Shown here in pieces: positions 10,615 through 23,726 of a stretch of 64,000 bases of DNA. The translations under genes were made by a program, and so were the position numbers. The first letter of the stretch is position 1. The number at the start of each line of letters is the position of its first letter. Below the pieces are notes generated by a model. It searched no databases, had not been told where the DNA came from, and saw nothing but the letters and a program-made list of their open reading frames with translations. The DNA is from Celeribacter litoreus (lineage in GTDB: Bacteria; Pseudomonadota; Alphaproteobacteria; Rhodobacterales; Rhodobacteraceae). The DNA is taken from the NCBI RefSeq assembly GCF_020165855.1, contig NZ_JAIUFY010000005.1, positions 1,033,403 through 1,097,402 on the forward strand, in the 5' to 3' direction.

Positions 10615-10867
10615 GTAAAGTCTCCAAGGGTGAAATTCCGACCCCCACGATATCGTTGCAGACAGGGAGCGCACGGGGGCGCGGGCACGGCGTTTCTGCA
10701 CAGCGCCTGTTTGCTCAAATACAAGGCATTTTTTTGAGCATCGGGTCAAAAAATGATCAAATTGATTTGGGATCGGATGCGATATTGTGTACAAAATCCC
10801 CTTCGGCGTCGGTTCGTGTCATGCAATTTGGCGTAACTTCCCTCCGAATCTCGACAGGATGCTGATC
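10615..10867. promoter_or_regulatory. Divergent intergenic region between the uptake/catabolic operon and the RidA gene
   Basis: About 250 bases with no gene. An AT-rich part near 10729-10765 holds overlapping inverted-repeat pieces (TGATCA directly followed by an ATCAA-A-TTGAT element), a plausible operator for a regulator of both directions. I cannot assign a regulator: none is encoded beside the cluster. Confidence 0.4.
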
Positions 10868-11260
10868 ATGAAAACTGCATTGACCCCCGATAGTATTGCC
10901 GCGCCGTTTGGTGCGTATTCCCACGGTATCGATAGTGGACCAGCAGGACGCGTGATCGTCACCTCAGGACAGCTCGGGCTCTCTCCCGATGGCACCTGCC
11001 CAGAGGGCGTGACCGCGCAGGCAGAGCAATGCTTCGCGAATATTGATGCGATCCTCAAAGAGGCGGGTGTTGGCCGTGACCAGGTTGTGCGGGTCAGCGG
11101 GTTCGTCACGAAACGTGAGGATTTCGCGACCTACATGGCCGTTCGCGACGCGTGGCTTGCGGATGTCGAGGTAAAGCCTGCCTCGACACTGCTCATCGTC
11201 ACGGGGTTCACCCGTGAAGAATTTCTCGTCGAGGTCGAGGTGACCGCCGTCGCGCCGTAA
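10868..11260 (+). CDS. Rid-family (RidA/YjgF) enamine/imine deaminase-like protein
   Basis: A 130-residue single-domain Rid protein. ATG at 10868 was preferred because AGGA lies 8-9 bases upstream; an in-frame ATG 9 bases earlier is possible. The family's features are visible: FGAYSHGI (near 15-22), VTSGQLGLSPDG (near 33-44) and a C-terminal VEVEVTAVAP strand. RidA hydrolyses reactive enamine/imine intermediates; the Arg near residue 103 of RidA homologues is not obviously conserved here, so it may belong to another Rid subgroup. Its divergent placement next to a catabolic operon suggests clean-up of an imine made by that pathway. Confidence 0.85.
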   Translation: MKTALTPDSIAAPFGAYSHGIDSGPAGRVIVTSGQLGLSPDGTCPEGVTAQAEQCFANIDAILKEAGVGRDQVVRVSGFVTKREDFATYMAVRDAWLADVEVKPASTLLIVTGFTREEFLVEVEVTAVAP

Positions 11261-11276: not shown

Positions 11277-11915
11277 TTAGTCCTTTGAAATCTTGAGGCC
11301 CATCTTTTTCAGAAGCGGGTGCCATTGCTCCTGAAGCTGACGATAGCGCGCTTGGGTCTGGTCAAAGACCGAAAGCCCCTCGCGCGCGAGGTCCACATAG
11401 GCTGCACGCTCGGAAATAAGCGTCACGAGCTTGTGCCCGTTGGCTTCCACAAAATCGCCCAAGAGCTTGGTGTCCTTCCGGCGCAGATCGACACGCGACC
11501 CGATCGGGAGGATATCAATCTTGTCTTTACGGACGCGCTTGAGATCTTGCAGGTCCTTGAGGAAGGACCGGATCGCCAATTCGTCAAAGAGCGACGCCAT
11601 GATTGGGGTGACGAGATAGTCTGCGTCCTTGACGAAGGGCTTCACGTCATCGGCTCCAACGCCCGCCCCACTGTCAATGATGAGCCAATCGGTCTTTTTC
11701 GGCACAGACGGCAGCGTCTCTTTCGACCAGTTCAGCACCGGAATATGTGCGGCATAGGCCGAGCGTCTCTTGCCCCACATACGCGCGGATTGTTGAGGAT
11801 CAGCATCCGCAAGAGCAACCCGATGGCCGAGGGACTTGAGCGCTCCGGCCAGTGTGATCGCTGTCATCGTTTTGCCTGCACCGCCTTTGCTGTTGGCAAC
11901 GAGAACAGTTTTCAT
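11277..11915 (-). CDS. ParA-family ATPase
   Basis: A 212-residue MinD/ParA/Soj-type ATPase. The deviant Walker A is SKGGAGKT (near residues 8-15, with the signature Lys before GG); Walker A' is ADADPQQSA and Walker B is WLIIDSGAGV (near 95-104). It lacks the N-terminal DNA-binding domain of type Ia plasmid ParAs, so it is the short Ib/orphan type. The ATG at 11915 shares one base with the TGA of the small ribbon-helix-helix gene upstream; a GTG at 11918 is an alternative start. Short ParAs usually partner a small RHH DNA-binding protein (ParG-like) or position large cytosolic assemblies. It converges on the RidA gene with a 16-base gap. Confidence 0.88.
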   Translation of the reverse strand: MKTVLVANSKGGAGKTMTAITLAGALKSLGHRVALADADPQQSARMWGKRRSAYAAHIPVLNWSKETLPSVPKKTDWLIIDSGAGVGADDVKPFVKDADYLVTPIMASLFDELAIRSFLKDLQDLKRVRKDKIDILPIGSRVDLRRKDTKLLGDFVEANGHKLVTLISERAAYVDLAREGLSVFDQTQARYRQLQEQWHPLLKKMGLKISKD

Positions 11916-12079
11916 CACGACCCTTTCTTGGCGTTCTTCTTCAAAAATTTCCGGATATGATCACGCAATTCGCGAGAGGCGGATGTGTCCATGTCCTCAC
12001 ACAATGCCACAAAGGCATCGCGATCCTCCTTCGGTAAGCGAATGATCAGACTGGCGTCTTTTTTGTTTTTCTGGCCCAT
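11915..12079 (-). CDS. Small ribbon-helix-helix (CopG/Arc-like) DNA-binding protein
   Basis: A 54-residue frame on the minus strand, ATG at 12077-12079 and TGA at 11915-11917. It starts MGQKNKKDASLIIRLPKEDR: a lysine-rich tip, a short beta strand (SLIIRLP), then two helices (DRDAFVALCEDM and SASRELRDHIRKFLKK), the classic Arc/CopG/ParG layout. The stop overlaps the parA start (TGATG), so the two are co-translated. By analogy with ParFG-type pairs it may bind its own promoter and a centromere-like site and stimulate the ATPase. The near-palindrome at 12094-12116 is the obvious candidate site. Confidence 0.82.
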   Translation of the reverse strand: MGQKNKKDASLIIRLPKEDRDAFVALCEDMDTSASRELRDHIRKFLKKNAKKGS

Positions 12080-12200: not shown

Positions 12201-12695
12201 TCACACGCCGCCGGAGTGAACGATCTCGTAGTAGATTTTTTCGAGCTCCTCTTTGTGCTCTGCTTCTTCATTCGCAAGGAAGGTGAAAGCCTCTTTGAGC
12301 GGTCCTTCCGGCGCCGTCGTGGCGAGTTCGGTGTATTGCTCCATCGCTGCCGTTTCGCGCATCAGGGCGTATTGGAGGACTGTCTGGTCGTCGGGGTTTT
12401 CGCCCAGATCGGGCACCTGCACGCAGTCGGAGAATTTGCCATCCGCCACGGGGCGCTGGATTTTCTCCGCCATCGCCTCGGAGACTTTCGGATCGTTCGC
12501 GAGCTTGGTGAAGAGGTCCACGTGGCCTTGTTCCTCTTCCGCAAGTTCGTCCACCAGCCATCTGATATTCTTGGAGACTTTCGGCGCAAGGGCTGCGTAA
12601 AAATCGCGGGCAACGACCTCGAACGAGGTGGCGGTGTCCATGATCTCTTTGACCGTCGTCAGGCCAGAGAGTTTTTCCTTGTTCGCTTCACTCAT
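12201..12695 (-). CDS. Ferritin-like/rubrerythrin-family di-iron protein
   Basis: A 164-residue four-helix protein; the ATG at 12695 (MSEANKEKLSGLTT) was chosen because it overlaps the upstream stop as ATGA. Paired carboxylate-histidine motifs are present: EVVARDFY (near 26), EEEQGH (near 53-58), RETAAMEQY (near 115-123) and NEEAEHKEEL (near 145-154), the E-x-x-H pattern of rubrerythrin/bacterioferritin-like di-iron centres. There is no C-terminal rubredoxin domain. It is the last gene of the Mrp-Nuo operon, translationally coupled to the NAD(P)H flavoprotein. It could reduce peroxide or O2, or accept electrons from the complex; its true role is unknown. Confidence 0.85.
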   Translation of the reverse strand: MSEANKEKLSGLTTVKEIMDTATSFEVVARDFYAALAPKVSKNIRWLVDELAEEEQGHVDLFTKLANDPKVSEAMAEKIQRPVADGKFSDCVQVPDLGENPDDQTVLQYALMRETAAMEQYTELATTAPEGPLKEAFTFLANEEAEHKEELEKIYYEIVHSGGV

Positions 12696-14488
12696 TGCAG
12701 CGCCTCCCGTTTTGCTGTGAGCATTCTGCTGATCGAAACCGCAACACGGTGGCCGTCCGCGACGGCGTGAATGACGTCGGGACCAGAGACCGCATCGCCC
12801 GCTGCCCAGAGCCATGGCTCGGAGGTTTGGCCGTCCGCATCAATCATGATCCGCCCACGGTTCCATTCGAGCTGTTCGGTGAGTTCCGCGCCCAAGAGCG
12901 AAATATCGGCCATCTGTCCGATGGCCTCGACGACCATACCGGCAGGATGGACCATCTCGTCGTCCTCATCGTATTTCGGGGCAAAGCGTCCCTCTGCGTC
13001 AAAGATCGCATCGACCTTCCATGTGCGCAGTCCAGTGACGGTGTCGCCATCGACCAGAATTTCCTGCGGTCCGCGCGCGGGGAAGATATCGCAGCCCTCT
13101 TCGAGCGCTTCTTCGATCTCTTCCTTATCGGCGAGGAAGCGGTCGAGTTCTTCGAGCGCGGTCACTGTCACGCCGACCTTGCCGTGTTTGATCTTTTGCA
13201 GGCGGGCCATGGAACGAGCGATATCCATCGCCACGTTGCCGCCGCCGATGACCGCGACTTGTTCGGGCACAGGAACCTCTTCGCCCGCCGTGATCCGGCG
13301 CAGCAGGTCAATCGCAGCTTCGGCTTTCTCCGAACCCGGCACGCGGGTGGAGCGGCCTTGGTGTAGGCCGATGGAAAGGACGACTGCGTCATAGGCCGTT
13401 TTCAGTTGGTCCATCGAGATTTCCTGACCCACCCGCATGTTGCAGCGGATCTCGACGCCCATGCTCTCAATGACGGAAATCTCGTGGTCCAGCACGTGGT
13501 AGGGCAGGCGGTATTCGGGAATGCCGTAGCGCATCATGCCGCCGGGTTTGTCGAGAGCTTCGAAAACCACGACCTGATGCCCTTTGCGGGCGAGATCGTA
13601 GGCGGTGGTCAGTCCCGCAGGTCCCGCACCGATAATGGCGACCGATTGACCCGTCTCCGGCACATCGGGTTTCTGGATCAGGTCGAAATAGCGCTCACGC
13701 GGCACGCTGTCTGTGATTGAGCGTTTGAGCCAGCGGATGGCGATGGCGTCGCCCTCATGCATCGCGGCGCAAGTCGTTTCGCATTTGTGGGTACAGATGC
13801 GCCCGCAAGCCTGCGAGAACGGGTTGGTCTCATAGAGAAGCTGCAAACCGCCCTCATAATCGCCGTCCCGCACTTTGGAAATGTAGTCGGGGATATCCAT
13901 GTGGGCGGGGCAGGTGGCAACACACAGCCCGCATTCGACGCAGCGGTCGGCCTCGATGATGGCCTGCTCCGCCGTGAACCCATCAACGATTTCGTCAAAG
14001 TTTCCAATGCGATCCTCGGGGCAGGTTTCTCCCATCGGGGCGCGGACGGTGCCGGTCAGGCGACGCTCGTCCTCGCGTTGATAGCCCTTTGGCTCCAGGT
14101 CCCACGATTTGGCGTCCACACCAGGGACAAACCGGAACGCGTCAGGGTCGCTATCAACCCAGGTGTATTCGTTCGACATCGTGAGAGAACCGGTCATGCA
14201 GACATCGACACAGAGCGCACACCAGCAGCAGCGCCCGTAGTCGATCATCGGGCGCAGGCCCGAGTCTCCGGGACCGGCGTTCTGGCCCTCAACCGGCACC
14301 ATGTCGATGGCGGCGTTCTGGCAAATCTCTTCGCAGGAGCCGCAGCCGATGCATTTGTCCATATCGTTCTGGTGAAAGCCCCGATACCGGTCCGAGGCCT
14401 CGCGGCTGAACGGGTCTTTGATCGTCACGGGATCATTGATGACATGTTTCCATGCCGTGAATGGGGAGAGAACATCGCGAAGGGACAT
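12692..14488 (-). CDS. Fusion of NuoI-like 8Fe ferredoxin with GltD/NfnB-like NAD(P)H oxidoreductase
   Basis: A 598-residue protein, start at 14488 (MSLRDVLSPF), 5 bases after the NuoD-like gene. Residues about 40-100 form a NuoI/ferredoxin domain with two CxxCxxCxxxC clusters (C46/49/52/56 and C87/90/93/97). A GltD-type N-terminal region follows with C183/186/189/193 and C228/232/236/240, then an FAD site GAGPAGL (287-293) and an NAD(P)H site GGGNVAMD (415-422). In bacterial complex I the NADH-oxidising part is NuoEFG, which is missing here; this fusion would bring NAD(P)H-derived electrons straight onto the NuoI-like wire. Whether NADH or NADPH is used, and whether ferredoxin also docks, is unknown. 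Confidence 0.88.
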   Translation of the reverse strand: MSLRDVLSPFTAWKHVINDPVTIKDPFSREASDRYRGFHQNDMDKCIGCGSCEEICQNAAIDMVPVEGQNAGPGDSGLRPMIDYGRCCWCALCVDVCMTGSLTMSNEYTWVDSDPDAFRFVPGVDAKSWDLEPKGYQREDERRLTGTVRAPMGETCPEDRIGNFDEIVDGFTAEQAIIEADRCVECGLCVATCPAHMDIPDYISKVRDGDYEGGLQLLYETNPFSQACGRICTHKCETTCAAMHEGDAIAIRWLKRSITDSVPRERYFDLIQKPDVPETGQSVAIIGAGPAGLTTAYDLARKGHQVVVFEALDKPGGMMRYGIPEYRLPYHVLDHEISVIESMGVEIRCNMRVGQEISMDQLKTAYDAVVLSIGLHQGRSTRVPGSEKAEAAIDLLRRITAGEEVPVPEQVAVIGGGNVAMDIARSMARLQKIKHGKVGVTVTALEELDRFLADKEEIEEALEEGCDIFPARGPQEILVDGDTVTGLRTWKVDAIFDAEGRFAPKYDEDDEMVHPAGMVVEAIGQMADISLLGAELTEQLEWNRGRIMIDADGQTSEPWLWAAGDAVSGPDVIHAVADGHRVAVSISRMLTAKREALQ

Positions 14489-14493
14489 GGGGC

Positions 14494-15675
14494 TTACCTT
14501 TCGATCTCTGGCGGGTAGGTGTGGAGCGACACCATGAGTGCGGCGACATCGGAGATATTGGTGCCGGAGATCAGGTGTTCGAGCAAAGCCATGGCGTGCG
14601 TATAGCTCGGCCCGCGCACGTTGATCCGACGCGGATATCCGGTGCCGTCTGTAACGAGATAATAGCCATACTCCCCGCGCGAGCTTTCGCCTTTGATGTA
14701 GGTCTCGCCACGCGGAATTTTCCAATGGAGCACGTTGGGCAGGTTGCCCATGACCGGCCCCTCTTTCGGCATCTTTTTGAGGATTTGCCGGATGAGTTGG
14801 ATCGTCTCGTGCAGGTCTTTGAAACGCACCATCGTGCGGGCGTAGATGTCTGAGGCCTCTTCCGTGTGGACGGTGAAGTCGAGCTGATCGTAGACGAGGT
14901 AGGGGCTGTCCTTACGCACGTCTTTGGCGACGCCACCCGCGCGGGCGTTCGGGCCTGTGACGCCGTAGCGCTCGAAGAGGGCAGGGTCGATATAACCCAC
15001 GCCTTGCGTGCGGGTTTTAAACACAGAGCTATGGAACATGAGCTTTTCGGCGTCTGCCAGATAGCGTTCTGCCGTGCTCAGGACCTCTTCCATGCGGCCT
15101 TCGAACCCTTCGGGCAGATGCGCGCGCACGCCGCCCGGGAGGATGAACATGTGATAGATGCGGGCACCGGTGAGTTCTTCGAACCGATCCAGCATCAGAT
15201 CGCGGGTGTAGGTCATCCATTGGCCGACCACACCGAGACCCAGCGCGCCGGAAATCCCGCCCATAGCCATCATGTAGCTGTTGAAGCGGCCCATCTCGAG
15301 GATCAGGGTGCGGATCCAAGTGGCCATTTCCGGCACCTCGATCCCTGCGAGTTCCTCGACGGCGGCGGCGTAGCAATATTCGTTGAAATCCGGCTCCGGC
15401 ACGCAGACGCGGCAGACGATCGGGAAGACCTGAATGAACGTCCGGCGTTCCATCAGTTTCTCGAACCCGCGGTGGAGGTAGCCGACATGGGTTTTGCCTT
15501 CGACGACTTCGTCACCACACACCGTCAGTTCAACCGACATGTTGCCCGTGATACCGGGGTGGTTCGGGCCGTGCCAGAGCTTGAGATACTTGCCGGTTTC
15601 CAGATCGACTTCGACTTTCCCGTCGGGGCCGGGCTGGGGGTATTGGGAGCGGTCAGGGGAGAAGGAGAACATCAT
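14494..15675 (-). CDS. Complex I 49-kDa (NuoD)/hydrogenase large-subunit-like protein
   Basis: A 393-residue cytosolic subunit of the NuoD/[NiFe]-hydrogenase large-subunit family. Complex I-like regions are clear: GPNHPGITG (36-44), AAAVEELAGIEVP (103-115), GARIYHMFILPGGV, and the C-terminal PPEIER. By eye, the His of the quinone site (HPxxHG) is Thr43 and the quinone Tyr is Val92. The same stretch has C88-R-V-C91, resembling the first CxxC of hydrogenases; the second, C-terminal CxxC is absent. It is therefore neither a standard quinone reductase nor a NiFe hydrogenase. ATG at 15675 overlaps the NuoC-like stop (ATGA); ATG at 15672 is an alternative. Confidence 0.88.
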   Translation of the reverse strand: MMFSFSPDRSQYPQPGPDGKVEVDLETGKYLKLWHGPNHPGITGNMSVELTVCGDEVVEGKTHVGYLHRGFEKLMERRTFIQVFPIVCRVCVPEPDFNEYCYAAAVEELAGIEVPEMATWIRTLILEMGRFNSYMMAMGGISGALGLGVVGQWMTYTRDLMLDRFEELTGARIYHMFILPGGVRAHLPEGFEGRMEEVLSTAERYLADAEKLMFHSSVFKTRTQGVGYIDPALFERYGVTGPNARAGGVAKDVRKDSPYLVYDQLDFTVHTEEASDIYARTMVRFKDLHETIQLIRQILKKMPKEGPVMGNLPNVLHWKIPRGETYIKGESSRGEYGYYLVTDGTGYPRRINVRGPSYTHAMALLEHLISGTNISDVAALMVSLHTYPPEIER

Positions 15676-16217
15676 TTGGCTCCTTTCGGGTAATCCGCAT
15701 AGAGCACTTTCTGCATATGCGTTTTCGGATCATGGGTCTCACGGCCCGGACGGTCGTGATAGGTTTGCTGCGAATAGGCGAGCGTATCGAAATCGCGGCG
15801 GTAGGGCGGCAGGTCGGTCCAGCCTTCTAGGATGAATTCCTCATCCACGCGCGGGCTACCGGGGAAGTTGATGCCGAACATCTCGCGCAACTCGCGCTGA
15901 TAGGTGGCGGCAGTTGGCCAGAGATCGTGGATCGTGTCGCCGGTCGCATCCTCACGGTCGAGCATCACGCGCAGGGCCAGTGTCAGATTGGCCTCGCGGT
16001 TGTTGATCATGTAGGTGAGCTGAAACTGCTGCTCTTCGATCCAGTCCACGGCGGTGAGGAGCGTCAGGTGTGTGAACCCTTCGACGTCGCGCAGTTCTGT
16101 CAGGATCGCACGCAGTTCAGAGCGTTTGACGGTCACGAAACACAGGTCATCGCGCTGAAACGTCGGCGTGCCGAAGTGGTAGCGGTCTTTGAGGCGGTAT
16201 AGGAGTTCTCTCATCAT
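15672..16217 (-). CDS. Complex I 30-kDa (NuoC)-like subunit
   Basis: About 180 residues. The conserved NuoC signature is visible near the middle as ELREMFGINFPGSPRVDEEF, close to the family's E-R-E-x-x-D-x-F-G-I-x-F pattern, and a C-terminal tail follows as in complex I and in MbhK/MbxK-type subunits. The start is uncertain: ATG at 16217 has GGTGAG upstream, whereas a GTG at 16226 overlaps the NuoB-like stop by 4 bases as in most junctions of this operon. It stabilises the NuoB/NuoD-like catalytic interface in the peripheral arm. Confidence 0.85.
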   Translation of the reverse strand: MMRELLYRLKDRYHFGTPTFQRDDLCFVTVKRSELRAILTELRDVEGFTHLTLLTAVDWIEEQQFQLTYMINNREANLTLALRVMLDREDATGDTIHDLWPTAATYQRELREMFGINFPGSPRVDEEFILEGWTDLPPYRRDFDTLAYSQQTYHDRPGRETHDPKTHMQKVLYADYPKGAK

Positions 16218-16222
16218 AGCGC

Positions 16223-16912
16223 TCACCAATTGTAATCCGGCATGTCCCAGTCCTTGATCACCGCCTTCTGGTTGGCTTTGTACTGGGCAAAGTTTTCGGC
16301 GTATTTGTTGGCCCCTTCGGCTTCACCCTTGCGGATGATCTGCTTGAGTTCCATGAACCCATGCAAAAGCGCCTCGGGCCGCGGCATGCAGCCCGCGATG
16401 TAGAGATCGACGGGCAGGTAATCGTCGAGTCGTTTGATCGTGTTGTAGCTGTCCCAATACATCCCGCCGTTGATGGTGCAGGAGCCGAGGCCCATCACGT
16501 ATTTCGGCTGCGGCATCTGCTCATAGGCGCGGATGGCGCGTTTGAGGGTTTTGACCGAGAGATAGCCAGAGATCACGAGGAGGTTCGCCTGACGCGGGGT
16601 CGGGCGCCACTGGATACCGTAGCGGTAGGCGTCAAAGCGGGGCGTCATCAGAGGGCGCATTTCAATCGCGCCGCAGCCCGTGCCAAAGCCCAAAATCCAG
16701 AGCGAGTTGGACCGCGCCCAGTTGTAGAAATCTTCTACGATTTTCGAATAGGCCTTCGGATGCACCTTCGGCTGCGCTTCGCAGAAGTAGTCGCGGAGCG
16801 GCTCAATCTCGATTTCCTGCCCGTCGGGGGTGGTCACTTTGCGCGGGCGAAGCTCTTCGCGCAGGGGGACTTCTTTGTTCTTTTTGAGAAACTTGTCGTC
16901 AACGTCTTCCAT
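16223..16912 (-). CDS. Complex I 20-kDa (NuoB)-like iron-sulfur subunit with altered N2 ligands
   Basis: A 229-residue subunit that would carry the terminal N2-like [4Fe-4S] cluster. NuoB landmarks: GCGAIEM (79-85), GSCTINGGMYW (143-153) and PVDLYIAGCMPRPEAL (167-182). Canonical NuoB has two adjacent cysteines before xxEM; here the first is C80 and the second is Gly81, while C145 and C175 match the other two ligands. Hydrogenase-type homologues have CxxC instead, also not seen. The cluster would thus have three protein cysteines or an unusual fourth ligand. The N-terminal 45 residues are charged and include an extra C44. A 10-base gap separates it from the NuoH-like gene. Confidence 0.87.
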   Translation of the reverse strand: MEDVDDKFLKKNKEVPLREELRPRKVTTPDGQEIEIEPLRDYFCEAQPKVHPKAYSKIVEDFYNWARSNSLWILGFGTGCGAIEMRPLMTPRFDAYRYGIQWRPTPRQANLLVISGYLSVKTLKRAIRAYEQMPQPKYVMGLGSCTINGGMYWDSYNTIKRLDDYLPVDLYIAGCMPRPEALLHGFMELKQIIRKGEAEGANKYAENFAQYKANQKAVIKDWDMPDYNW

Positions 16913-16922
16913 GGTCTCACCC

Positions 16923-17840
16923 TCACACGGTCAGGATGGCGAGGACGCCAATCGGCAGCCCCCATTTGAGGAAAAAGCGGATGCTCTGCTCAACGCGGAA
17001 ACGCGGGTGCACGACGCCGATGACGACGGACACCATGTAGAGGCAGAACACTTTGATTGCGAACTCGGCCCAGGAGGTGGCGCCTCCGAAGAACAGGTTC
17101 ATGTAGATGACGGTTTTCGCGACCGGAAACAGCACGCGGTTCGTCTGCATCAGCGCCAGATAAGAGGAGTGGTATTCCGTCGGCGGGCCGATCGGAATTT
17201 CCTGCGGCGCGATCACCACGTCAAACGGAGAGCGCATCATGGTGCCCACAAAGGCAACCATAGCGGCGACAGTGGCGAGCGGGTTGGTGAACACGGTCCA
17301 GTTGAAGATGGAGCCCTGCTGCGCGGCGACGATTTCGGTGATGTCGAGCGTCTGATACTGGAGCGACAGAGCATAGACCCCAAGGGCGAGCGGTAGCTCG
17401 GCCATGGTCACTTGCGATAGGCCACGCGAGACGCCGATGGCGCTGTGGGGATGCCCGCTCTCGCCCGCGCCGAGGGCCATGCCCAGCGTGCCGAAGAAGA
17501 TGAAGTAGAGCGCGAGGATCAGGTCACCTGCGTAGGAAAAGTTTTGGTGCCATTCGGAGCCGTAGATCGTCGGAACGAACAACAGTAGGCCCACACCGCC
17601 CGTGAGACGAAACACTGGCCCGAGATAGAACATCACGCCGTGGGTGATTTTGGACCGCAGGGCGATGTTCTTGGCGAGGTCGATGTAGTTTTGCCAGACA
17701 GGGATGCCGTAGCGCCCTCCGACCCGCGCGCCGATCTTGCGCACGACGGCGGTCATCACCATCCCGTAGTTGATGACGATGAAGAGCGTCAGGAGGGCAT
17801 AGGCCACTTGGACCCATTCGAAGTTCGGAAGCGAATTCAT
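16923..17840 (-). CDS. NuoH-like membrane subunit
   Basis: A 305-residue protein with about eight membrane helices, of the NuoH/MbhM/EchB family that joins the peripheral redox arm to the ion-pumping arm. The family's charged loops appear as RSPFDVVIAPQEIPIGPPTEYHSS in the middle-to-late part, corresponding to the NuoH loop near the quinone tunnel entrance. It overlaps the fused antiporter gene by 4 bases. In the archaeal Mbx/MBS operon the corresponding subunit also lies between the MrpD-like and the NuoB-like genes. Confidence 0.87.
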   Translation of the reverse strand: MNSLPNFEWVQVAYALLTLFIVINYGMVMTAVVRKIGARVGGRYGIPVWQNYIDLAKNIALRSKITHGVMFYLGPVFRLTGGVGLLLFVPTIYGSEWHQNFSYAGDLILALYFIFFGTLGMALGAGESGHPHSAIGVSRGLSQVTMAELPLALGVYALSLQYQTLDITEIVAAQQGSIFNWTVFTNPLATVAAMVAFVGTMMRSPFDVVIAPQEIPIGPPTEYHSSYLALMQTNRVLFPVAKTVIYMNLFFGGATSWAEFAIKVFCLYMVSVVIGVVHPRFRVEQSIRFFLKWGLPIGVLAILTV

Positions 17841-20800
17841 GACAGGCCTCCCATGGCGATCAGGTAGACGGCAATGACGAAGAAAAGCAGTTGCACGGCG
17901 TAGGTCTGGCCGTTGCCTGTGTAGAGTTTGCGGGTGAAGTCCGCGGTGCCGTGGAGCATGTTCGAGACGCCGCTCCAGAAGCTCGTTGCGACAGGCGTTT
18001 CAAGGAACCCCATGGCCTTGCGGTATGGCGCAAAGAAGTTCCACGCAAAGTGCGTTGTCTGCGGTTTGAACGGGCGTTCGGCGGAGAAGACGATGTTGAA
18101 CTGCTTCACCTTCTGCGCGTTGTGGTTCATCCAGATGAGCAGGATGAAGACGACCACAAACACCGTGGCGATGACGCCCCAGATCGCGACGGGGTTCCAT
18201 GTGCCGTATTGGCTATCGACGATCTTGCCGGTCCAGACGAGCGGCGTATCCCCGAAGAGCGTGCCGATATAGCTGTCCACACGGCGCAAGATCATGCCGG
18301 GCAGGATCGCGAAGGACAGAAGGAAGCCCACGAAAAGCATCTGCGGCAGGAGGATCCAGAACGGAGCTTCTTTCGTGAGGCGCAACTCGTCTTTGAGTTG
18401 GCCGAGGAAGATCGTGTGGATCAGGCGGAACAGGTAGAGGAAGCCGACCGGACCCGCCATGAAGATCAGGATCATCGGCAGACGCAGGTCCGTGGACATG
18501 ATCGCGTTGTAGAAAATCCAGCGGCCCCCGAAACCGGAGAGCGGCGGGACGCCAGACATGGCGATGATGCCGACGAGCACGGAGACGAAGGTGAAGGGCA
18601 TGAGGGTGATCAGCCCGCCCATTTTGTACATGAGCTTCGTATGCGTGCGCTCTTTGACGCCGCCGACGGCGAGGAAGAGCATGCTTTTGTAGACGAAGTG
18701 GTTGATCGCGAACATGAGCGCGAGGAGCCATCCGAGGTGGTTCATGAGCGCGAGGCCAAAGACCGCATAGCCCATTTGCGAGATGGAGCTGTAGGCGAGC
18801 AGGCGTTTGGCATCCTCTTGGAAGGCAGAGAGCACCGCGCCGATGAAGGCGGAGAGTGCCCCGAGCCAGACGAGCACGATGGTGAGATCAACACCAAAGA
18901 GCTCCTGCCGCCCCATTTCCATCAGGAGAACGAAGAGACCGAACAAACCGGCTTTGAGCAGGATACCGGAGACCATCGGCGACACATCCGTCTCTGCCTC
19001 TGCGTGTGCGCCGGGGAGCCAGATGTGGAGGCCCATGACGGCGGTTTTCGTCAGGAAACCTGCGGCGAGGAGGACGAAGACATAGGGGGCGATCCTGGAC
19101 GGAACTTCGGACAGGTTCTCGATGGGAAAAGTCGGAGCGCCGTTTGCGGCAATGGCAAACCCTGCAAGGAGGGCAAAGGCCCCGCCGAGCGAGAAGGTGA
19201 TGTAAGAGAGCGCATGAGGCTCGCTATCCTGTCCGCGCAGGATGAGGAAATAGCTGCCAACCGTCAGGAATTCCCAAGCTGCGAAGAACTGGAAACTTGT
19301 CTCGGACGTCACGAGTAGGCCCATACCGGCGAACATCAGAAGAGCTGGCGTGTAGAAACCCATCCGACGCCCTGTTGCATGGAACGAGGCCAGCAAGAGG
19401 ATCGCGCCCCCCAAGACCATGATGATCAGGAAGACGTAGCGGAGTGGATCGAGGCCGTTTTTCGTCACCGCAAACCAGAACACGAGACCTGCGATGGCGA
19501 GGACGTTCTTGATCCGCGCGGGCAGGATGTCGAGTGGCAGGAACAGAAGGGCGAAGAGCAGGGGAACGAGTGTGATTAAGTTCTCTTGACCCGACAGGTT
19601 GCCCCAAACCCAGCTCACAGCGATTGCCAGCGCGGCGGCGATAAGTGCGATGGCCTCACCCGTCAGAGAAATATGGAGGCTATGCCCACTGCTGCGTTTG
19701 AGCGCCATCCCGAACCACCGAAAGAGCACAGTGGCCTCAATGAGCGCAGCGATGAGGAAGACGGCCATGAGGCTGTAGGCGCCATCGGTCGCGAGGACAT
19801 GCACGAAGGACCATTTCGCGTAGAAGGCGGGGAAGGGCGGCAGGCCCGTCAGCATCGCGATGAAGACGGCAAACAGAACCACAAGCACAGGGTTTTCCCG
19901 CAGCGCGGCCCAATCGGACAGGTCGCGCGCTTTCACCATGCCGGAGAGCCAGAAGAGGCCCGCCTTCGCAATCGCATGCGACACGAGAAGCCCACCGGCA
20001 ATGTAGAGGAAGCTGTCGCCCAGACGATCCGCGAACCCGATGACGAGCAGGATGAGACCGATCTGACCGACAGAGCTATATCCGAGCAGGCGGCGATCAT
20101 GTGTCTGCGCGAGGGCAAGAAGGTTCGCGCCGACAAAGGTCACGATGCCAATCCCAGCGGCGAGCAGGGCCCAATCGGGACCAGCCATGGCGAGAACTTT
20201 GTAGACCGCAAAGAGGGCTGCGCTGCCGGAGGCGGCGGAGAAGATGGCGGAAAACCCGGGATGGGCGGATTCATAGATGTCGAGCGCCCAGCCGTTCGCG
20301 GGGAAGGGTTTGAGTTCGAGGATCAGCGCGATCAACACGAGGAACATGGCAAGCGACGCGCCATTCGCGCCCATCGGGACTTCGGAGATGTCGTCGATAT
20401 TGAGCGAGCCGTTGGCGTGGTAGGTAAAGATTATGCCAATCAAGAGTAGGATCGAGATGACCTGCGACACGACGAGGTATTTGAACCCAGCGGCTAAGGC
20501 GCGCGTGTCTTTGGAGAGCAGCACGAGGCCCGCCGTCGCGATCACGATCAGTTCGAGGAAAACGAACATATTGAACAGGTCTCGGGTCATGATGAGGCCC
20601 GAAAGCGCCATGATGAGGACGAGCAGCACCGCCATGGCGCGTCGCCCGAGGCGGAGAAGATCTCGGCGCATGAAGAACGCAGAAAGGAGACCCGTGAGCG
20701 TCACGACCGAGGTCAACGCGGCTTCGGCAATGCCCGTCCGGAGATTGATGGCGAAGGGCGGTTTCGCCCCTGCCGTGAGCATTTCGACGGGGTCAGTTTG

Positions 20801-20962
20801 ACCCGAGGCGAGCGCGACGGTCCATGACAGGGCAACGAAGGCCATGACAGCCAGCGCGCCAACGGTTGTGTGAAAGGCCGCCCGTTCTGAGGTCTCGCGC
20901 AAAAGCCCGAGAAGGAAGGCCGCACCTAGACCTGCGGCGAGGATGAGGAGAGGATTTACCAT
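17837..20962 (-). CDS. Tandem-fused MrpD/NuoN-NuoM-like antiporter subunits, double length
   Basis: A 1041-residue membrane protein made of two proton-antiporter (Proton_antipo_M) units. Unit 1 (about 1-500) has E137 in TM5 and K218 in TM7, but the central TM8 Lys position is Ser247; K333 is in TM12. Unit 2 (about 505-890) keeps E564, K639, K670 and K759. A C-terminal part (about 890-1041) has a helix at 925-945, a polar stretch and a final helix at 1022-1038. Archaeal Mbx/MBS operons encode two adjacent MrpD paralogues (H and H') here; I see a fusion of them, with no internal stop. It overlaps the MrpC-like gene by 7 bases. It should translocate H+ or Na+. Confidence 0.9.
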   Translation of the reverse strand: MVNPLLILAAGLGAAFLLGLLRETSERAAFHTTVGALAVMAFVALSWTVALASGQTDPVEMLTAGAKPPFAINLRTGIAEAALTSVVTLTGLLSAFFMRRDLLRLGRRAMAVLLVLIMALSGLIMTRDLFNMFVFLELIVIATAGLVLLSKDTRALAAGFKYLVVSQVISILLLIGIIFTYHANGSLNIDDISEVPMGANGASLAMFLVLIALILELKPFPANGWALDIYESAHPGFSAIFSAASGSAALFAVYKVLAMAGPDWALLAAGIGIVTFVGANLLALAQTHDRRLLGYSSVGQIGLILLVIGFADRLGDSFLYIAGGLLVSHAIAKAGLFWLSGMVKARDLSDWAALRENPVLVVLFAVFIAMLTGLPPFPAFYAKWSFVHVLATDGAYSLMAVFLIAALIEATVLFRWFGMALKRSSGHSLHISLTGEAIALIAAALAIAVSWVWGNLSGQENLITLVPLLFALLFLPLDILPARIKNVLAIAGLVFWFAVTKNGLDPLRYVFLIIMVLGGAILLLASFHATGRRMGFYTPALLMFAGMGLLVTSETSFQFFAAWEFLTVGSYFLILRGQDSEPHALSYITFSLGGAFALLAGFAIAANGAPTFPIENLSEVPSRIAPYVFVLLAAGFLTKTAVMGLHIWLPGAHAEAETDVSPMVSGILLKAGLFGLFVLLMEMGRQELFGVDLTIVLVWLGALSAFIGAVLSAFQEDAKRLLAYSSISQMGYAVFGLALMNHLGWLLALMFAINHFVYKSMLFLAVGGVKERTHTKLMYKMGGLITLMPFTFVSVLVGIIAMSGVPPLSGFGGRWIFYNAIMSTDLRLPMILIFMAGPVGFLYLFRLIHTIFLGQLKDELRLTKEAPFWILLPQMLFVGFLLSFAILPGMILRRVDSYIGTLFGDTPLVWTGKIVDSQYGTWNPVAIWGVIATVFVVVFILLIWMNHNAQKVKQFNIVFSAERPFKPQTTHFAWNFFAPYRKAMGFLETPVATSFWSGVSNMLHGTADFTRKLYTGNGQTYAVQLLFFVIAVYLIAMGGLS

Positions 20963-21315
20963 TTCAGCTCCGTAAAATCAGAGATGTCGAGGCTCCCGCG
21001 GGCGCGGAACAGCCGGTAGGCATATGCGAGCATGAGGGCGGTGACCCCGAGGCCGATGACGATGGCTGTGAGGACGAGGGCCTGTGGGACCGGATCGGTG
21101 ATCCGTTCGGCGGCAGATGCAACGGGGATCGTGTCGAGGATCGGGGCTTCGCGTCCGGGGAGATAGCCGACCGCCACGAGCACGAGGTTCACGCCTGTGC
21201 TGGCTATCGTGAAGCTCACAATCATGCGCAGGATATTGCGATTGCTCAGCGCGCCGTAGAGGCCGAGGAAGATCAGGGCAAAGCCCGTGGCGAGAGAGAT
21301 TTGAACGAGGGTCAT
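20956..21315 (-). CDS. mrpC: MrpC/NuoK-like antiporter subunit
   Basis: A 119-residue protein with three membrane helices, the NuoK/MnhC fold. The family pattern is clear near the third helix: TDPVPQALVLTAIVIG (about 77-92). The position between the MnhB-like and MrpD-like genes is that of mrpC in Mrp operons and of mbhG/mbxG in archaeal complexes. It overlaps both neighbours (4 and 7 bases). Confidence 0.9.
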   Translation of the reverse strand: MTLVQISLATGFALIFLGLYGALSNRNILRMIVSFTIASTGVNLVLVAVGYLPGREAPILDTIPVASAAERITDPVPQALVLTAIVIGLGVTALMLAYAYRLFRARGSLDISDFTELKW

Positions 21316-22019
21316 TCTGCGTCCTCCGTCTCTTCGAGAGATGTCAGGATAGAGGAGAATTCCGCCCCGACCTTGAGACCCACGAGCACATAGATCAGCG
21401 GGATGGCTCCTGCGGAGAAGATCGATCCGAAGGTGCCAAGCGGCAGGATCTTGTTGTCGAGGAAGCCACCGGCAAAGAGCAGCCCGAGAAGACCGAGGAT
21501 GACGTAGGTCAGGCCCGCGGAGCTTTCGATTTTCGAGATCAGGCCATGTGAGAAGCGTTCAGCGGGATCAGCGAGCAGCATAAGCAGCATCGCGGAGGCG
21601 ACAATCGCCCCGCCTTGGAACCCGCCGCCGGGGGTCAGGTGCCCGTTAATGAAGACATAAGCGCCGAAGAGCAGGATCACAGGCACAAGCATCCGCGCGC
21701 CGGTCTGGAGCAACTCACCCGAGGGCAGGCCTCCTGCGCCTGCATGGGCGGAGGGGGCTTTGGACTGCGACAGCACAAGGCCGACGATGGCTGCGGTCAG
21801 GAACAGGACAGTGACTTCCCCGAGCGTATCAAGCCCGCGATAGGTCACGATAATCGCCGTCACGATGTTCTGAGCACCAGTTTCAGGAACGGTTTGATCC
21901 GCGTAATAGCTTGCTGTGAGATTTAGGCTGGCGTCGGGCGTGTAGCTGCTGAAGAGAGCGAAGAAGACGGTCCCGAGGAGTGCAACGAGCACCAATGGAA
22001 TGGCCATGCGTGTTGTCAT
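21312..22019 (-). CDS. MbhE/MnhB-like fused antiporter subunit
   Basis: A 235-residue membrane protein in two parts. Residues 1 to about 95 resemble the MbhE-type segment (NIVTAIIVTYRGLDTLGEVT near 51-70). Residues about 100-235 are MnhB-like (GAYVFINGHLTPGGGFQGGA near 119-138). In standard Mrp operons these sit at the end of MrpA and in MrpB; in archaeal Mbh they are separate genes E and F. It overlaps both neighbours by 4 bases. It belongs to the ion-translocating arm. Confidence 0.87.
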   Translation of the reverse strand: MTTRMAIPLVLVALLGTVFFALFSSYTPDASLNLTASYYADQTVPETGAQNIVTAIIVTYRGLDTLGEVTVLFLTAAIVGLVLSQSKAPSAHAGAGGLPSGELLQTGARMLVPVILLFGAYVFINGHLTPGGGFQGGAIVASAMLLMLLADPAERFSHGLISKIESSAGLTYVILGLLGLLFAGGFLDNKILPLGTFGSIFSAGAIPLIYVLVGLKVGAEFSSILTSLEETEDAE

Positions 22020-22267
22020 TGTGTGCCCTCCCGACGGATGCGGCCCATCACGAAGATGAACAGGAACGTGGTGAGGCCGGAGCCGATGGCGGCCTCGGTC
22101 ATGGCGACGTCTGGCGCGGCGAGGAGCAGGAACATCACGGAGGCGAAGAGCGACACGAGGCCCGCCGCGAGCACGGCGACGAGTGTCGATCTGGCGAGCA
22201 GGGCGAGCACGGCGGCGGAGAGTGATGCGAGCGCAAGCACCGCGCCGAGGATGGTGAGGCCGATCAT
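22016..22267 (-). CDS. MbhD-like small antiporter subunit (DUF4040)
   Basis: An 83-residue, three-helix protein. The start at 22267 (MIGLTILGAV) gives a 4-base ATGA overlap with the mrpG stop; the longer frame upstream is not needed. The conserved segment AAPDVAMTEAAIGSGLTT (about 49-66) is the hallmark of the MrpA C-terminal domain/MbhD family. Its appearance as a separate small gene fits the archaeal Mbh/Mbx-like layout, not a stand-alone Mrp antiporter with a large MrpA. Confidence 0.87.
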   Translation of the reverse strand: MIGLTILGAVLALASLSAAVLALLARSTLVAVLAAGLVSLFASVMFLLLAAPDVAMTEAAIGSGLTTFLFIFVMGRIRREGTQ

Positions 22268-22602
22268 GTCAGGTCCTCCATGTCGCGGGACAGGTAATCT
22301 GCATCGCCTTTTGGACGGACACCGGCGCGATGGGCGGCGCGGGCGAGGACCTGTGAGGACAGCGGGTTGGTAAACATCAGGAAGAGCATGATGAGCAACA
22401 GTTTGATCGCCCACGACGGCTCGATGAGCGCGGTGCCGACGAGGACGAGCAGCGTGCCGAGGGTGGTGGCTTTCGTGCCCGCCTGAATACGGTTGTAGAC
22501 GTCAGGCATCCGCACGAGGCCGAGGCCTCCTAGCGCGAGGAAAGCGGCGCCGGTCACGAAAACGAATGCGCCTAGAGTGTCGAGAAAACCGGAGAGGATC
22601 AT
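22264..22602 (-). CDS. mrpG: Mrp antiporter subunit MrpG
   Basis: A 112-residue protein with three helices and the MrpG/MbhC signature GLVRMPDVYNRIQAGTK (about 27-43), followed by TLGTLLVLVG. The C-terminal 30 residues are polar and cytosolic. It overlaps mrpF and the DUF4040 gene by 4 bases each. It is a structural part of the multi-subunit cation/proton antiporter arm. Confidence 0.9.
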   Translation of the reverse strand: MILSGFLDTLGAFVFVTGAAFLALGGLGLVRMPDVYNRIQAGTKATTLGTLLVLVGTALIEPSWAIKLLLIMLFLMFTNPLSSQVLARAAHRAGVRPKGDADYLSRDMEDLT

Positions 22603-22862
22603 TCTTCACCTCCTTCGATGTATCTGGCGGCGACGAGGACGCCGAGGAAGGACAGGAGCGCATAGACCAGTGCAACGTCGAGGTAGATTGCCCGCCCGCT
22701 GATGAGGGCGGCGAGGATGATTCCTGTGACGGAGACAATGGTCAGGGCGTCAAAGCCGACAATGCGGTCTGCGGCGGTTGGGCCTTTGAAGAACCGGTAG
22801 CCCGCCATTGCGAAGGTGAGCACCGTGAGGACGCCCGCGAGGATGAGGAACAGATCAGCCAT
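22599..22862 (-). CDS. mrpF: Mrp antiporter subunit MrpF
   Basis: An 87-residue protein with three helices and the MrpF/MbhB motif GPTAADRIVGFDALT (about 27-41). It overlaps mrpE by 8 bases and mrpG by 4. Order E-F-G is that of both Mrp and Mbh/Mbx operons. Confidence 0.9.
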   Translation of the reverse strand: MADLFLILAGVLTVLTFAMAGYRFFKGPTAADRIVGFDALTIVSVTGIILAALISGRAIYLDVALVYALLSFLGVLVAARYIEGGEE

Positions 22863-23406
22863 ACATCACCTCCAGATACCGCTCGAACCCGGCAACGATC
22901 TCTTGTGTGGCTTCGTCTAGGTCGGTGCTCTTGGTGACGACCCAGTGGATGTAGAGAAACTCGCCCTTAATCTCGCAGGTGAGCGTGCCGGGTGTGAGGG
23001 TGATCGCATTCGCGAGCAAAAGCCGCGCCACCGGATCGGTGAGCGTGGTGCGCACTTTGACGATGGCGGGAGAGATGGGGAGCGAGGGTTTCATGACCAG
23101 TGCGGCGAGTGAGAGGTTTGCCTTTACCAGTTCCTTGAGAAAATACCCGATGAATTGGAACGCCGCGAAGATGCCCGCTGGCGCGAGGTTAAAGCCTGAC
23201 AGGAAGGATAAATGCCGCCCGAAGGCCGCCGAGATGACGCCCGCGACGACAAGACCGGACAGGATTGTCGCGAATGACAGAGACGCATTGAGCAAAACCC
23301 AGAAGAGGAACAAAGTCGCGAACAGGCGTAGAGAGACGCCCCCGCTGAGACCGTCTAGGGGCGGCGGCGCAGTTTGACCTTTGTCTGCGAGATGTGTGTC
23401 GCTCAT
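22855..23406 (-). CDS. mrpE: Mrp antiporter subunit MrpE
   Basis: A 183-residue protein, first gene of the 11-kb operon. ATG at 23406 (MSDTHLADKG) was chosen because GGAG lies at a suitable distance upstream; a start at 23436 is possible. The MrpE/MbhA pattern is seen in two N-terminal helices, the LVKANLSLA segment and the C-terminal LANAITLTPGTLTCEI (about 131-146). No separate mrpA gene precedes it, consistent with an Mbx-like complex and not a free Mrp antiporter. Confidence 0.88.
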   Translation of the reverse strand: MSDTHLADKGQTAPPPLDGLSGGVSLRLFATLFLFWVLLNASLSFATILSGLVVAGVISAAFGRHLSFLSGFNLAPAGIFAAFQFIGYFLKELVKANLSLAALVMKPSLPISPAIVKVRTTLTDPVARLLLANAITLTPGTLTCEIKGEFLYIHWVVTKSTDLDEATQEIVAGFERYLEVMYG

Positions 23407-23726
23407 GAGAAGGATCTCCGTTTCTGGCGTGAGCATGCAGGCACCCGTTCGGAGCCGCAGACCTGCGGGTTCGGGTGGCCAAATGTCGGAGCAATTATCG
23501 GGACGAACCCGTTCGGGGTGAGGAGGTTAGCTATGTCTTGGGGACGGTTAGAGCACATATTCAAAGCTGCTTATTTGACTTCGAACAAAGAAACCGTTTT
23601 TTGTGAGGGGCTGGGCGGTTTTTTCTGGCCTTTTGCGGGGTAAAGTTCCCGCAAAACAATAAACCTGCAGTCAGCCCACGCGCGTCGAAAGTTAATTTCT
23701 TTACGGTCATAAAGAAGGTCCGAGCC
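23407..23726. promoter_or_regulatory. Divergent intergenic region upstream of the Mrp-Nuo operon
   Basis: 320 bases without a convincing gene. It must hold the promoter for the Mrp-Nuo operon (leftward) and for the hydroxyacid dehydrogenase (rightward). The half nearer mrpE has nested inverted repeats (23442-23511). An 8/10 match to an FNR box, TTGAC-N4-AACAA, is at 23575-23588. A short 89-residue frame at 23374-23643 has no family features. Confidence 0.5.
23442..23511 (-). repeat. Nested and alternative inverted repeats in the mrpE leader
   Basis: CACCCG (23442-23447) pairs with CGGGTG (23472-23477), enclosing the perfect CCGCAG-AC-CTGCGG (23455-23468). CGGGTTCG (23466-23473) can instead pair with CGAACCCG (23504-23511). 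The two folds share bases, so they exclude each other. ACCCGTTCGG also occurs twice (23443 and 23507). The block lies 36-105 bases before the mrpE start. Confidence 0.5.

What the first reader, a model, noticed from the sequence alone, without database searches (positions are those of the whole stretch)
12201..23406. Bacterial Mbx/MBS-like membrane complex: Mrp antiporter arm joined to NuoHBCD and an NAD(P)H flavoprotein
Seen: 13 tightly overlapping genes in the order MrpE, F, G, MbhD-like, MbhE/MnhB-like, MrpC, MrpD-D', NuoH, NuoB, NuoC, NuoD, NuoI-GltD fusion, di-iron protein. Known: this is the order of archaeal Mbh/Mbx (MBS) operons (A-B-C-D-E/F-G-H-M-J-K-L-N), not of bacterial nuo operons or seven-gene mrp operons; as far as I recall, Thermotogales have an Mbx-like cluster with a GltD-like gene. 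Inferred: a Na+- or H+-pumping oxidoreductase in an otherwise ordinary alphaproteobacterium, taking electrons from NAD(P)H or ferredoxin. Its acceptor is unknown: sulfane sulfur, a quinone at an altered site, protein di-iron, or reverse operation to make reduced ferredoxin or NADPH. The host also has an NDUFA12 gene, implying a separate normal complex I.
Basis: partly seen in the sequence, partly recalled or inferred. Interest (0 to 1): 0.95.

Follow-up and report, generated by a model that had tools for sequence, protein, structure and literature searches.

The report
NADH-linked bacterial MBS-type sulfur complex
Besides its ordinary complex I, a bacterium close to Celeribacter carries a 13-gene cluster for a relative of the archaeal sulfur-reducing complex MBS, which likely passes electrons between NAD(P)H and sulfur chains and would move protons or sodium ions across the membrane as it does so; the same core cluster, with the same three cysteines at the predicted reaction site, occurs in several bacterial phyla.

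Summary
Confirmed. Thirteen packed minus-strand genes (12201-23436) read MrpE-F-G-MbhD-MbhE/MnhB-MrpC-(MbsH+MbsH' fused)-NuoH-B-C-D-(NuoI+GltD fused)-di-iron protein. Five genes match P. furiosus MBS (6u8y) better than complex I or Mbh; the NuoD tree joins MBS (100/99) and an AU test rejects complex I (p 0.0005; NuoB undecided). The NuoB-like subunit keeps exactly the three MBS cluster cysteines (74 of 74 rows); quinone residues and most NiFe ligands are gone. The host's nuoABCDEFG lies elsewhere. All 80 relatives examined keep the order (50 complete, 30 cut), in Proteobacteria, Bacteroidetes, Spirochaetes and Neomarinimicrobia. The kind is known: MBX in T. maritima, which also rings for the NuoI-GltD family, and a putative Mrp-Mbx in the Riftia symbiont. 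Not found described in my searches: the NADH-type input in Proteobacteria; a fused pump pair lacking the first TM8 lysine (60 of 60 rows); a di-iron protein in 48 of 53 loci with room (L004-L062), but one weak hit in 16 others; block loss at one site within the genus. Most likely a reversible, ion-translocating NAD(P)H:sulfane-sulfur oxidoreductase; substrate, direction and stoichiometry are untested.

The parts
22855..23436 (-). MrpE-like subunit (193 aa; a second ATG at 23406)
   Evidence: PF01899 7.4e-36
22599..22862 (-). MrpF-like subunit
   Evidence: PF04066 2.8e-16
22264..22602 (-). MrpG-like subunit
   Evidence: PF03334 1.2e-25
22016..22267 (-). MbhD/MbsD-like subunit (83 aa), Glu58 conserved
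   Evidence: PF13244 1.3e-16; E58 in 53 of 53 aligned rows
21312..22019 (-). MbhE+MnhB-like subunit
   Evidence: PF20501 1.3e-9 and PF04039 5.9e-26
20956..21315 (-). MrpC/NuoK-like subunit
   Evidence: PF00420 7.1e-25
17837..20962 (-). MbsH and MbsH' fused in one 1041-residue antiporter-like subunit; first half lacks the TM8 lysine (MbsH K250)
   Evidence: 6u8y_H on residues 6-314 and 6u8y_X on 443-1038; K250 column T/A/S/G in 60 of 60 rows, column checked against MbsH, HycC, HyfD, HyfF
16923..17840 (-). NuoH/MbsM-like membrane anchor
   Evidence: 6u8y_M 126.8 bits, next 6cfw_M 48.5
16223..16912 (-). NuoB/MbsJ-like subunit; C80, C145, C175 = three-Cys ligation of the proximal 4Fe-4S cluster
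   Evidence: 6u8y_J 216.4 bits, next 139.3; three Cys in 74 of 74 rows
15672..16229 (-). NuoC/MbsK-like subunit (TTG at 16229; ATG codons just inside)
   Evidence: PF00329 1.8e-25
14494..15675 (-). NuoD/MbsL-like subunit; quinone residues and most NiFe ligands lost
   Evidence: 6u8y_L 302.1 bits, next Nqo4 221.1; tree and AU test
12692..14488 (-). NuoI/MbsN-like ferredoxin domain fused to a GltD/NfnL-type FAD, NAD(P)H and 2x[4Fe-4S] domain (598 aa)
   Evidence: 6u8y_N 83.7 bits on residues 7-123 of the submitted frame and GltD/NfnL-type chains on about 150-597; PRK13984 852 bits, below its cut-off of 946
12201..12695 (-). Ferritin-like di-iron protein (164 aa) with conserved C-terminal tail, last gene of the unit
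   Evidence: PF02915 1.6e-13; model pLDDT 92, helical bundle; conservation in 30 sequences

Best explanation
The 13 genes encode a bacterial complex of the MBS (Mbx) type that likely carries electrons between NAD(P)H and sulfane sulfur (polysulfide, persulfide or organic trisulfide) and is predicted to couple this, reversibly, to proton and sodium movement. Shown by sequence: the subunit set and order of MBS, a GltD/NfnL-type NAD(P)H module fused to the NuoI/MbsN subunit, the MBS three-cysteine cluster site, loss of the quinone residues and of most NiFe ligands, and an Mrp-type membrane arm. Inferred path: NAD(P)H (NADH more likely) gives a hydride to FAD, electrons pass two [4Fe-4S] clusters of the GltD part and two of the NuoI part to the proximal cluster in the NuoB-like subunit, whose iron without a cysteine ligand binds and splits an S-S bond. 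Redox change at this cluster would drive the fused H-H' subunit and the Mrp-like Na+/H+ module. Because NADH gives far less energy than ferredoxin with this acceptor, I infer a geared-down pump (fitting the lost TM8 lysine) that works near equilibrium and can run backwards. The di-iron protein likely protects, or re-supplies iron to, the exposed cluster in hosts that meet oxygen.
For: Five genes (six MBS chains) match the MBS structure 6u8y best: L 302 vs 221 bits, J 216 vs 139, the NuoI part 84 vs 44 for the next NuoI-type chain, X 185 and H 147 vs MbhH 128, M 127 vs 48. NuoD tree: MBX plus MbxL 100/99; placing MBX with complex I apart from MBS rejected, p 0.0005. Cys80/145/175, aligned to MbsJ C28/C93/C123, in 74 of 74 rows; Gly in the window protein where MbsJ has C25, which the MBS paper found dispensable (PMC7684303 passages). 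GP[NQI]HPGxTGN in 82 of 82 NuoD rows puts Thr where Nqo4 has His38. All 16 cluster cysteines of the fusion in 73 or 74 of 74 rows; the NAD(P)-site motif reads xLE in 19 of the 21 rows printed, against YRR in the three PDB relatives printed. SoxB in 28 of 30 proteobacterial carriers searched against 93 of 149 genomes of the family (this set includes 2 carriers). T. maritima mbxA rises 4.36-fold with S0 (PMC9431562 passages); the Riftia symbiont's putative Mrp-Mbx shares co-expression neighbours with the rTCA cycle, as do sulfur globule proteins (PMC11636981 passages).
Against: I saw no activity, complex or transcript data for this organism. SoxB enrichment is not corrected for kinship: Rhodobacterales carriers 8 of 9 vs 93 of 149 (Fisher p 0.16), genus carriers 7 of 7 vs 9 of 13 (p 0.25); none of the 9 carriers searched from other phyla, nor the unclassified L038, has SoxB. 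With the MBS figure of 41 kJ per 2e and recalled potentials, NADH to polysulfide yields only about 2-10 kJ per 2e, too little for one proton at an ordinary pmf, so forward pumping is doubtful unless NADPH, ferredoxin or a better acceptor is used. Apart from the di-iron gene no neighbouring gene family recurs in more than 7 of 80 loci (families not named there), so context does not point to sulfur. NADH rather than NADPH rests on one motif, and two printed rows (L006, L040) carry basic residues there. The NuoB AU test does not reject complex I (p 0.30).
Confidence: 0.55

Rival explanations
1. The complex mainly runs backwards: it takes electrons from sulfide or persulfide and, driven by proton or sodium influx, reduces NAD(P)+, a reverse electron transport that by-passes the quinone pool.
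For: Energetics near zero for NADH/polysulfide (from 41 kJ); 28 of 30 proteobacterial carriers searched have SoxB, and many bear names of sulfur or iron oxidisers (physiology recalled); in the Riftia symbiont the putative Mrp-Mbx shares neighbours with the rTCA cycle.
Against: Carriers also include Spirochaetes, Bacteroidetes and a Neomarinimicrobium without SoxB. The MBS precedent runs as a reductase. The host is not shown to be autotrophic.
Confidence: 0.25
2. It is a ferredoxin-NAD(P)H exchanger: the NuoI part docks ferredoxin, the GltD part handles NAD(P)H, and the membrane arm drives or is driven by that exchange.
For: Mbx was called a ferredoxin:NADP+ oxidoreductase in PMC6349859 (passage); NuoI and GltD parts each keep eight cluster cysteines; no RnfC at 1e-60 in any of 20 genomes of the genus.
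Against: Both partners would use the same input arm, leaving the conserved open cluster site and chamber without a job. Nitrogenase, a major ferredoxin user, is over the cut-off in only 16 of 40 carriers and not in the host or the three named Celeribacter genomes.
Confidence: 0.1
3. It is a quinone reductase with an altered quinone site, in effect an alternative complex I.
For: General complex I architecture, and a chamber similar in size in MBS and complex I (PMC7684303 passages).
Against: Thr at the Nqo4 His38 place in 82 of 82 rows, and Val at the Tyr87 place in the row variants printed; one cysteine where complex I has the tandem pair.
Confidence: 0.05
4. The di-iron protein is the acceptor: NAD(P)H electrons pass through the complex to reduce peroxide or O2 there.
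For: Linked in 48 of 53 loci of L004-L062 with room; gone or a relic, with the unit, in the six non-carriers fetched; conserved tail.
Against: Among 16 other loci with room only one weak hit, while the core subunits remain, all 12 of them for instance in L064, L066 and L072, so it is an add-on. No rubredoxin domain.
Confidence: 0.04

Closest known systems
MBS (Mbx) of Pyrococcus furiosus, PDB 6u8y
   Same: Subunit set and Mrp-type arm, MbsJ three-Cys cluster, loss of the quinone residues, two antiporter-like units, NuoD tree position.
   Different: GltD-type NAD(P)H module fused to the N subunit; H and H' fused in one gene; TM8 lysine of H lost; one of the two NiFe cysteines left in MbsL also lost in all but 2 rows; di-iron protein. 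P. furiosus MBS uses ferredoxin (passages).
MBX of Thermotoga maritima
   Same: Described as a 13-subunit MBS homologue in a bacterium, raised by S0 (PMC9431562 passages); T. maritima rings over the cut-off for the NuoI-GltD family PRK13984.
   Different: Its sequences were not fetched here, so pump lysine, H-H' fusion and the di-iron protein could not be compared. That paper models ferredoxin as the donor.
Putative Mrp-Mbx of the Riftia endosymbiont
   Same: Noted in a sulfur-oxidising symbiont, with direction and function listed as unknown (PMC11636981 passages).
   Different: The passages seen give no subunit analysis; its locus was not compared here.
Respiratory complex I (NuoA-N)
   Same: Homologous H, B, C, D, I, K and antiporter subunits.
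   Different: No NuoEFG, no tandem Cys, no quinone residues; the host has a separate nuo cluster.
Mbh and group 4 hydrogenases (Hyc, Hyf)
   Same: Antiporter-type membrane arm and common ancestry.
   Different: Of four NiFe ligands one is usually kept, rarely two; separate in the tree.

Membership tests
MBS/Mbx | Proximal cluster held by only three cysteines of the J subunit | tested here: met
   By sequence only: C80, C145, C175 aligned to MbsJ C28/C93/C123, 74 of 74 rows
MBS/Mbx | No quinone-site His/Tyr and no full NiFe ligand set in the L subunit | tested here: met
   Thr at the His38 place in 82 of 82; NiFe-type cysteine C91 in 71 of 82; Tyr at the Cys385 place in 79, Cys in 2, gap in 1
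MBS/Mbx | L subunit groups with MbxL apart from complex I and hydrogenases | tested here: met
   100/99 support; AU p 0.0005; long branches flagged
MBS/Mbx | J subunit groups with MbxJ apart from complex I | tested here: inconclusive
   Support 100/100, AU p 0.30
MBS/Mbx | Mrp-type Na+/H+ module and two antiporter-like units | tested here: met
   the two units are fused and one lacks the TM8 Lys
MBS/Mbx | Reduces sulfane sulfur and pumps ions | not testable with these tools
   Needs biochemistry
Complex I | NuoEFG module linked | tested here: not met
   0 of 80 loci and none in the window by tblastn; the host's own EFG is on contig C13
Complex I | Tandem Cys for cluster N2 and quinone His/Tyr | tested here: not met
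Group 4 [NiFe] hydrogenase | Four Cys ligands (two CxxC) in the large subunit | tested here: not met
Rubrerythrin (gene at 12201-12695) | Ferritin-like four-helix bundle with E/ExxH di-iron ligands | tested here: met
Rubrerythrin (gene at 12201-12695) | Rubredoxin domain and the extra Glu of the ExxE motif (recalled) | tested here: not met
   164 aa with a single Cys, so no rubredoxin domain; Ala at the ExxE place in the window sequence

The most novel reading that the evidence does not exclude
A widespread bacterial branch of MBS works as a reversible sulfide/persulfide:NAD+ ion-coupled oxidoreductase, geared down to a single working proton pump by loss of the TM8 lysine, which lets sulfur-oxidising Proteobacteria make NAD(P)H from sulfane sulfur without the quinone pool, with a dedicated di-iron protein that keeps the open [4Fe-4S] catalyst alive in air.
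Probability: 0.2. Interest if true: 0.85.

Novelty: new variant of a known kind. Interest (0 to 1): 0.62.

Why it matters
The MBS authors ask how different free energies (12-81 kJ per 2e) are matched to different numbers of pumped protons, and discuss adding or inactivating one pump. This family looks like a natural case: an MBS site fed by NAD(P)H, with one pump half lacking a central lysine in each of the 60 rows checked. It sits in culturable Proteobacteria, including Celeribacter species that differ in having or lacking it, so the question becomes testable outside hyperthermophiles. If it runs in reverse it would add a route for making NAD(P)H in sulfur oxidisers. It would also show a site-differentiated [4Fe-4S] catalyst in organisms that meet oxygen, together with a candidate protector.

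Tried and rejected
Nitrogen fixation as the purpose: nifH over the cut-off in 16 of 40 carriers searched, not in the host or the three Celeribacter genomes. Rnf partnership: RnfC at 1e-60 in 0 of 20 genomes of the genus. Recurring neighbours: besides the di-iron gene (43 loci) the largest flank clusters are two of 7 loci each; one lies antisense to the di-iron gene or at flank edges, the other 0.6-6 kb away on either strand and was not identified. Viral carriers: one pattern match, no relative. Finer family of the di-iron protein: no Foldseek match at E 0.001 or better, and VIA-align only re-ranks Foldseek's own 1000 chains, so none is claimed. The complex of Ca. Symbiobacter that PMC4053972 compares with Mbx is a six-gene Hyf-like set, set aside (passage). 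Print: searches found bacterial MBX in T. maritima and the Riftia symbiont but, in the listings and passages seen, no account of the NADH-type fusion in Proteobacteria, the lost lysine or the di-iron partner; most subscription papers are not in that library, so this is no proof of absence. The 520 relatives may include some complex I genes; only the best 80 were kept and used.

Rows dropped: the alignments leave out fragments shorter than 60% (J, L, I), 70% (MbhD, MrpC, NuoH) or 80% (H-H', di-iron) of the window protein, giving J 74, L 82, I 74, H-H' 60 rows, window included; L085 of the family search was added to the 80 loci. Of the 80 loci I chose 40 for the whole-genome searches; one (L011) was not held, so 39 plus the host were searched. 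The NuoD tree used 25 of 80 loci plus the window, the NuoB tree 24; L106 gave no complex I rows. A2 used 29 of 48 related di-iron sequences; L010 was left out because its frame lacked an ATG.


Full report
Anatomy. The minus-strand unit runs from 23436 to 12201. Two genes are fusions. The 1041-residue antiporter-like gene matches 6u8y_H (MbsH) over residues 6-314 and 6u8y_X (MbsH') over 443-1038. The 598-residue gene matches MbsN over residues 7-123 and GltD/NfnL-type flavoproteins over about 150-597; it fits NCBI family PRK13984 over nearly its whole length with 852 bits, below the curated 946.

Which family. Against PDB sequences, the best relative of the NuoD-, NuoB-, NuoH- and antiporter-like genes, and the best NuoI-type relative of the fusion, is in each case the P. 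furiosus MBS structure: 302 vs 221 bits, 216 vs 139, 127 vs 48, 185 and 147 vs 128, 84 vs 44. The small Mrp-type subunits were not compared this way. In a tree with complex I from the host and six other carriers, E. coli, Thermus, Mycolicibacterium and Aquifex, and with Mbh, Hyc and Hyf as outgroup, the 26 bacterial NuoD rows join MbxL (100/99); complex I is separate (91/92). Placing bacterial MBX with complex I apart from MBS is rejected (p 0.0005). The shorter NuoB protein gives MBX plus MbxJ 100/100 but its AU test is undecided (p 0.30). Long branches are flagged in both trees.

Reaction site. The MBS paper (PMC7684303; outline with abstract, passages, and sections 11 and 12 read) reports that the proximal cluster is held by MbsJ C28, C93 and C123, that C25 and MbsL C85/C385 are not needed, that Nqo4 His38 and Tyr87 are absent in MBS, and that the iron without cysteine is the proposed site that splits polysulfide. 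Aligned to that, the window protein has C80, C145 and C175, present in 74 of 74 rows; Gly stands where MbsJ has C25. NuoD has Thr at the His38 place in 82 of 82 rows; of the NiFe-type cysteines C91 (MbsL C85) remains in 71 of 82, and the Cys385 place is Tyr in 79, Cys in 2 and a gap in 1. So the quinone and hydrogenase readings lose their residues, and the MBS reading keeps what the MBS experiments found necessary.

Electron input. The eight NuoI-type and eight GltD-type cluster cysteines are kept in 73 or 74 of 74 rows. At the end of the second strand of the NAD(P) fold the three PDB relatives printed read YRR, whereas 19 of the 21 family rows printed read xLE (ALE, CLE or SLE); by general Rossmann knowledge (recalled) an acidic residue favours NADH. 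L006 and L040 carry basic residues there. T. maritima is the one of 14 control genomes that rings for PRK13984, over the cut-off, so the fusion is not confined to the groups seen here.

Membrane arm. MbsD E58 is kept in 53 of 53. In the second half (MbsH'), E128, K248 and H336 are kept in 60 of 60, K217 in 59 with one unread residue, and K399 is R in 49 and K in 11. In the first half (MbsH), E138 (58, two gaps), E219 (E 56, D 4), H330 and K393 are kept, but the TM8 lysine K250 is T, A, S or G in 60 of 60; a separate alignment with MbsH, HycC, HyfD and HyfF confirms the column and shows Asn there in HyfF. I infer an altered or idle first pump. The MBS paper gives 41 kJ per 2e for its reaction and ties it to two protons. 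With recalled potentials for ferredoxin, NADPH and NADH this becomes about 20 kJ with NADPH and 2-10 kJ with NADH, so a geared-down, reversible machine is what energetics would ask for. This link is inference.

Distribution. The named genome scan kept the 80 best relatives: Celeribacter and other Rhodobacterales, Chromatiaceae, Thiothrix, Sedimenticola, Magnetovibrio, Magnetospirillum, Gallionella and Rhodoferax among them, then Bacteroidetes, Neomarinimicrobia, Spirochaetes and others at 61-67% identity. All 12 core genes in the same order are seen in 50 of 80, eight of these outside L004-L062; the other 30 are contiguous parts; none deviates. NuoE, F and G are found in none of the 80; NuoE of the canonical kind is over the cut-off in 32 of 40 carriers searched. 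It is rare and patchy: 2 of 149 genomes of the family at 1e-75, 2 of 385 of the class by PRK13984 at 1e-100 (the second a divergent copy), 7 of 20 in the genus.

Gain and loss in the genus. In the two other carriers fetched the unit lies between the ParA-like gene and the 2-hydroxyacid dehydrogenase gene, as in the window; in the remaining four carriers the dehydrogenase gene is about 8 kb from NuoD, as in the window. In the six non-carriers fetched (of 13) those two genes are neighbours, with gaps of about 400-610 bases. One gap (L129) holds a relic of about 200 bases of NuoD at 87% identity to a carrier, another (L126) a 52-residue relic of the di-iron protein's end. This suggests at least two losses of the unit as a block; a formal reconstruction was not made.

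The di-iron protein. Of 53 loci of L004-L062 (Proteobacteria and a few unclassified) with room, 48 have it at about 50% identity or more (45 directly downstream, 3 upstream of MrpE), one has a 27% relative (L038) and 4 have none (L020, L045, L047, L059). Of 16 further loci (L063-L083) with 700 bases of room one has a 31% relative (L069). Six di-iron ligand positions and the tail (H[SR]GG..) are conserved; the model is a confident helical bundle. Loci without it can hold all 12 core genes (L045, L064, L072), so it is an accessory. Protection or iron re-supply of the open cluster is my best guess; it is untested.

Sulfur link. SoxB is over the cut-off in 28 of 40 carriers searched: 28 of 30 Proteobacteria, 0 of 10 others; in 93 of 149 genomes of the family, carriers included; and in 7 of 7 carriers vs 9 of 13 non-carriers in the genus. 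Fisher p is 0.0005 for 28/30 vs 93/149, but the taxa differ and kinship is not corrected; within Rhodobacterales (8 of 9) and the genus it is not significant. In print, T. maritima mbxA rises with S0 (PMC9431562) and the Riftia symbiont's putative Mrp-Mbx shares neighbours with the rTCA cycle (PMC11636981); both were seen as passages only, as were PMC6349859, PMC6085437 and PMC4053972.

Verdict. A real, conserved, MBS-type complex; the kind is known, the variant (NADH-type input, fused and altered pump pair, di-iron partner, spread through Proteobacteria) appears undescribed in what I could search.

Noticed in passing
L105:6485-8452 (-): In a divergent alphaproteobacterial relative (G529, NuoD about 49% identical) the C-terminal part of the di-iron protein is in frame with the end of the GltD part in one 656-residue frame, without its first half; the NuoI and GltD parts lie in different frames there, so the copy may be decaying or misassembled.
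   Followed up: partly
L006, I-GltD gene downstream of 10001-11179: Celeribacter ethanolicus has a much more diverged NuoI-GltD (70%) than its NuoD (92%), with basic residues at the NAD(P) site: possible gene replacement or switch of coenzyme.
   Followed up: no
window 23631-23656: An inverted repeat (TTTTGCGGG...CCCCGCAAAA) lies between the divergent MrpE and 2-hydroxyacid dehydrogenase genes; possible operator (by eye).
   Followed up: no
window 11277-11918: A ParA/CbiA-like ATPase gene forms the left border of the unit in the two carriers and six non-carriers of the genus that were fetched.
   Followed up: no
L063, L064, L070, L072, L081, L082 downstream flank: In some relatives outside Proteobacteria, genes that look by eye like CBS-domain or dihydroorotate-dehydrogenase-like proteins follow the unit (clusters 3 and 7; names by eye).
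   Followed up: no
L085 (G003): The second carrier in the family sample has NuoD only 74% identical, about as far as Magnetovibrio (76%); the family may have acquired the unit more than once.
   Followed up: no
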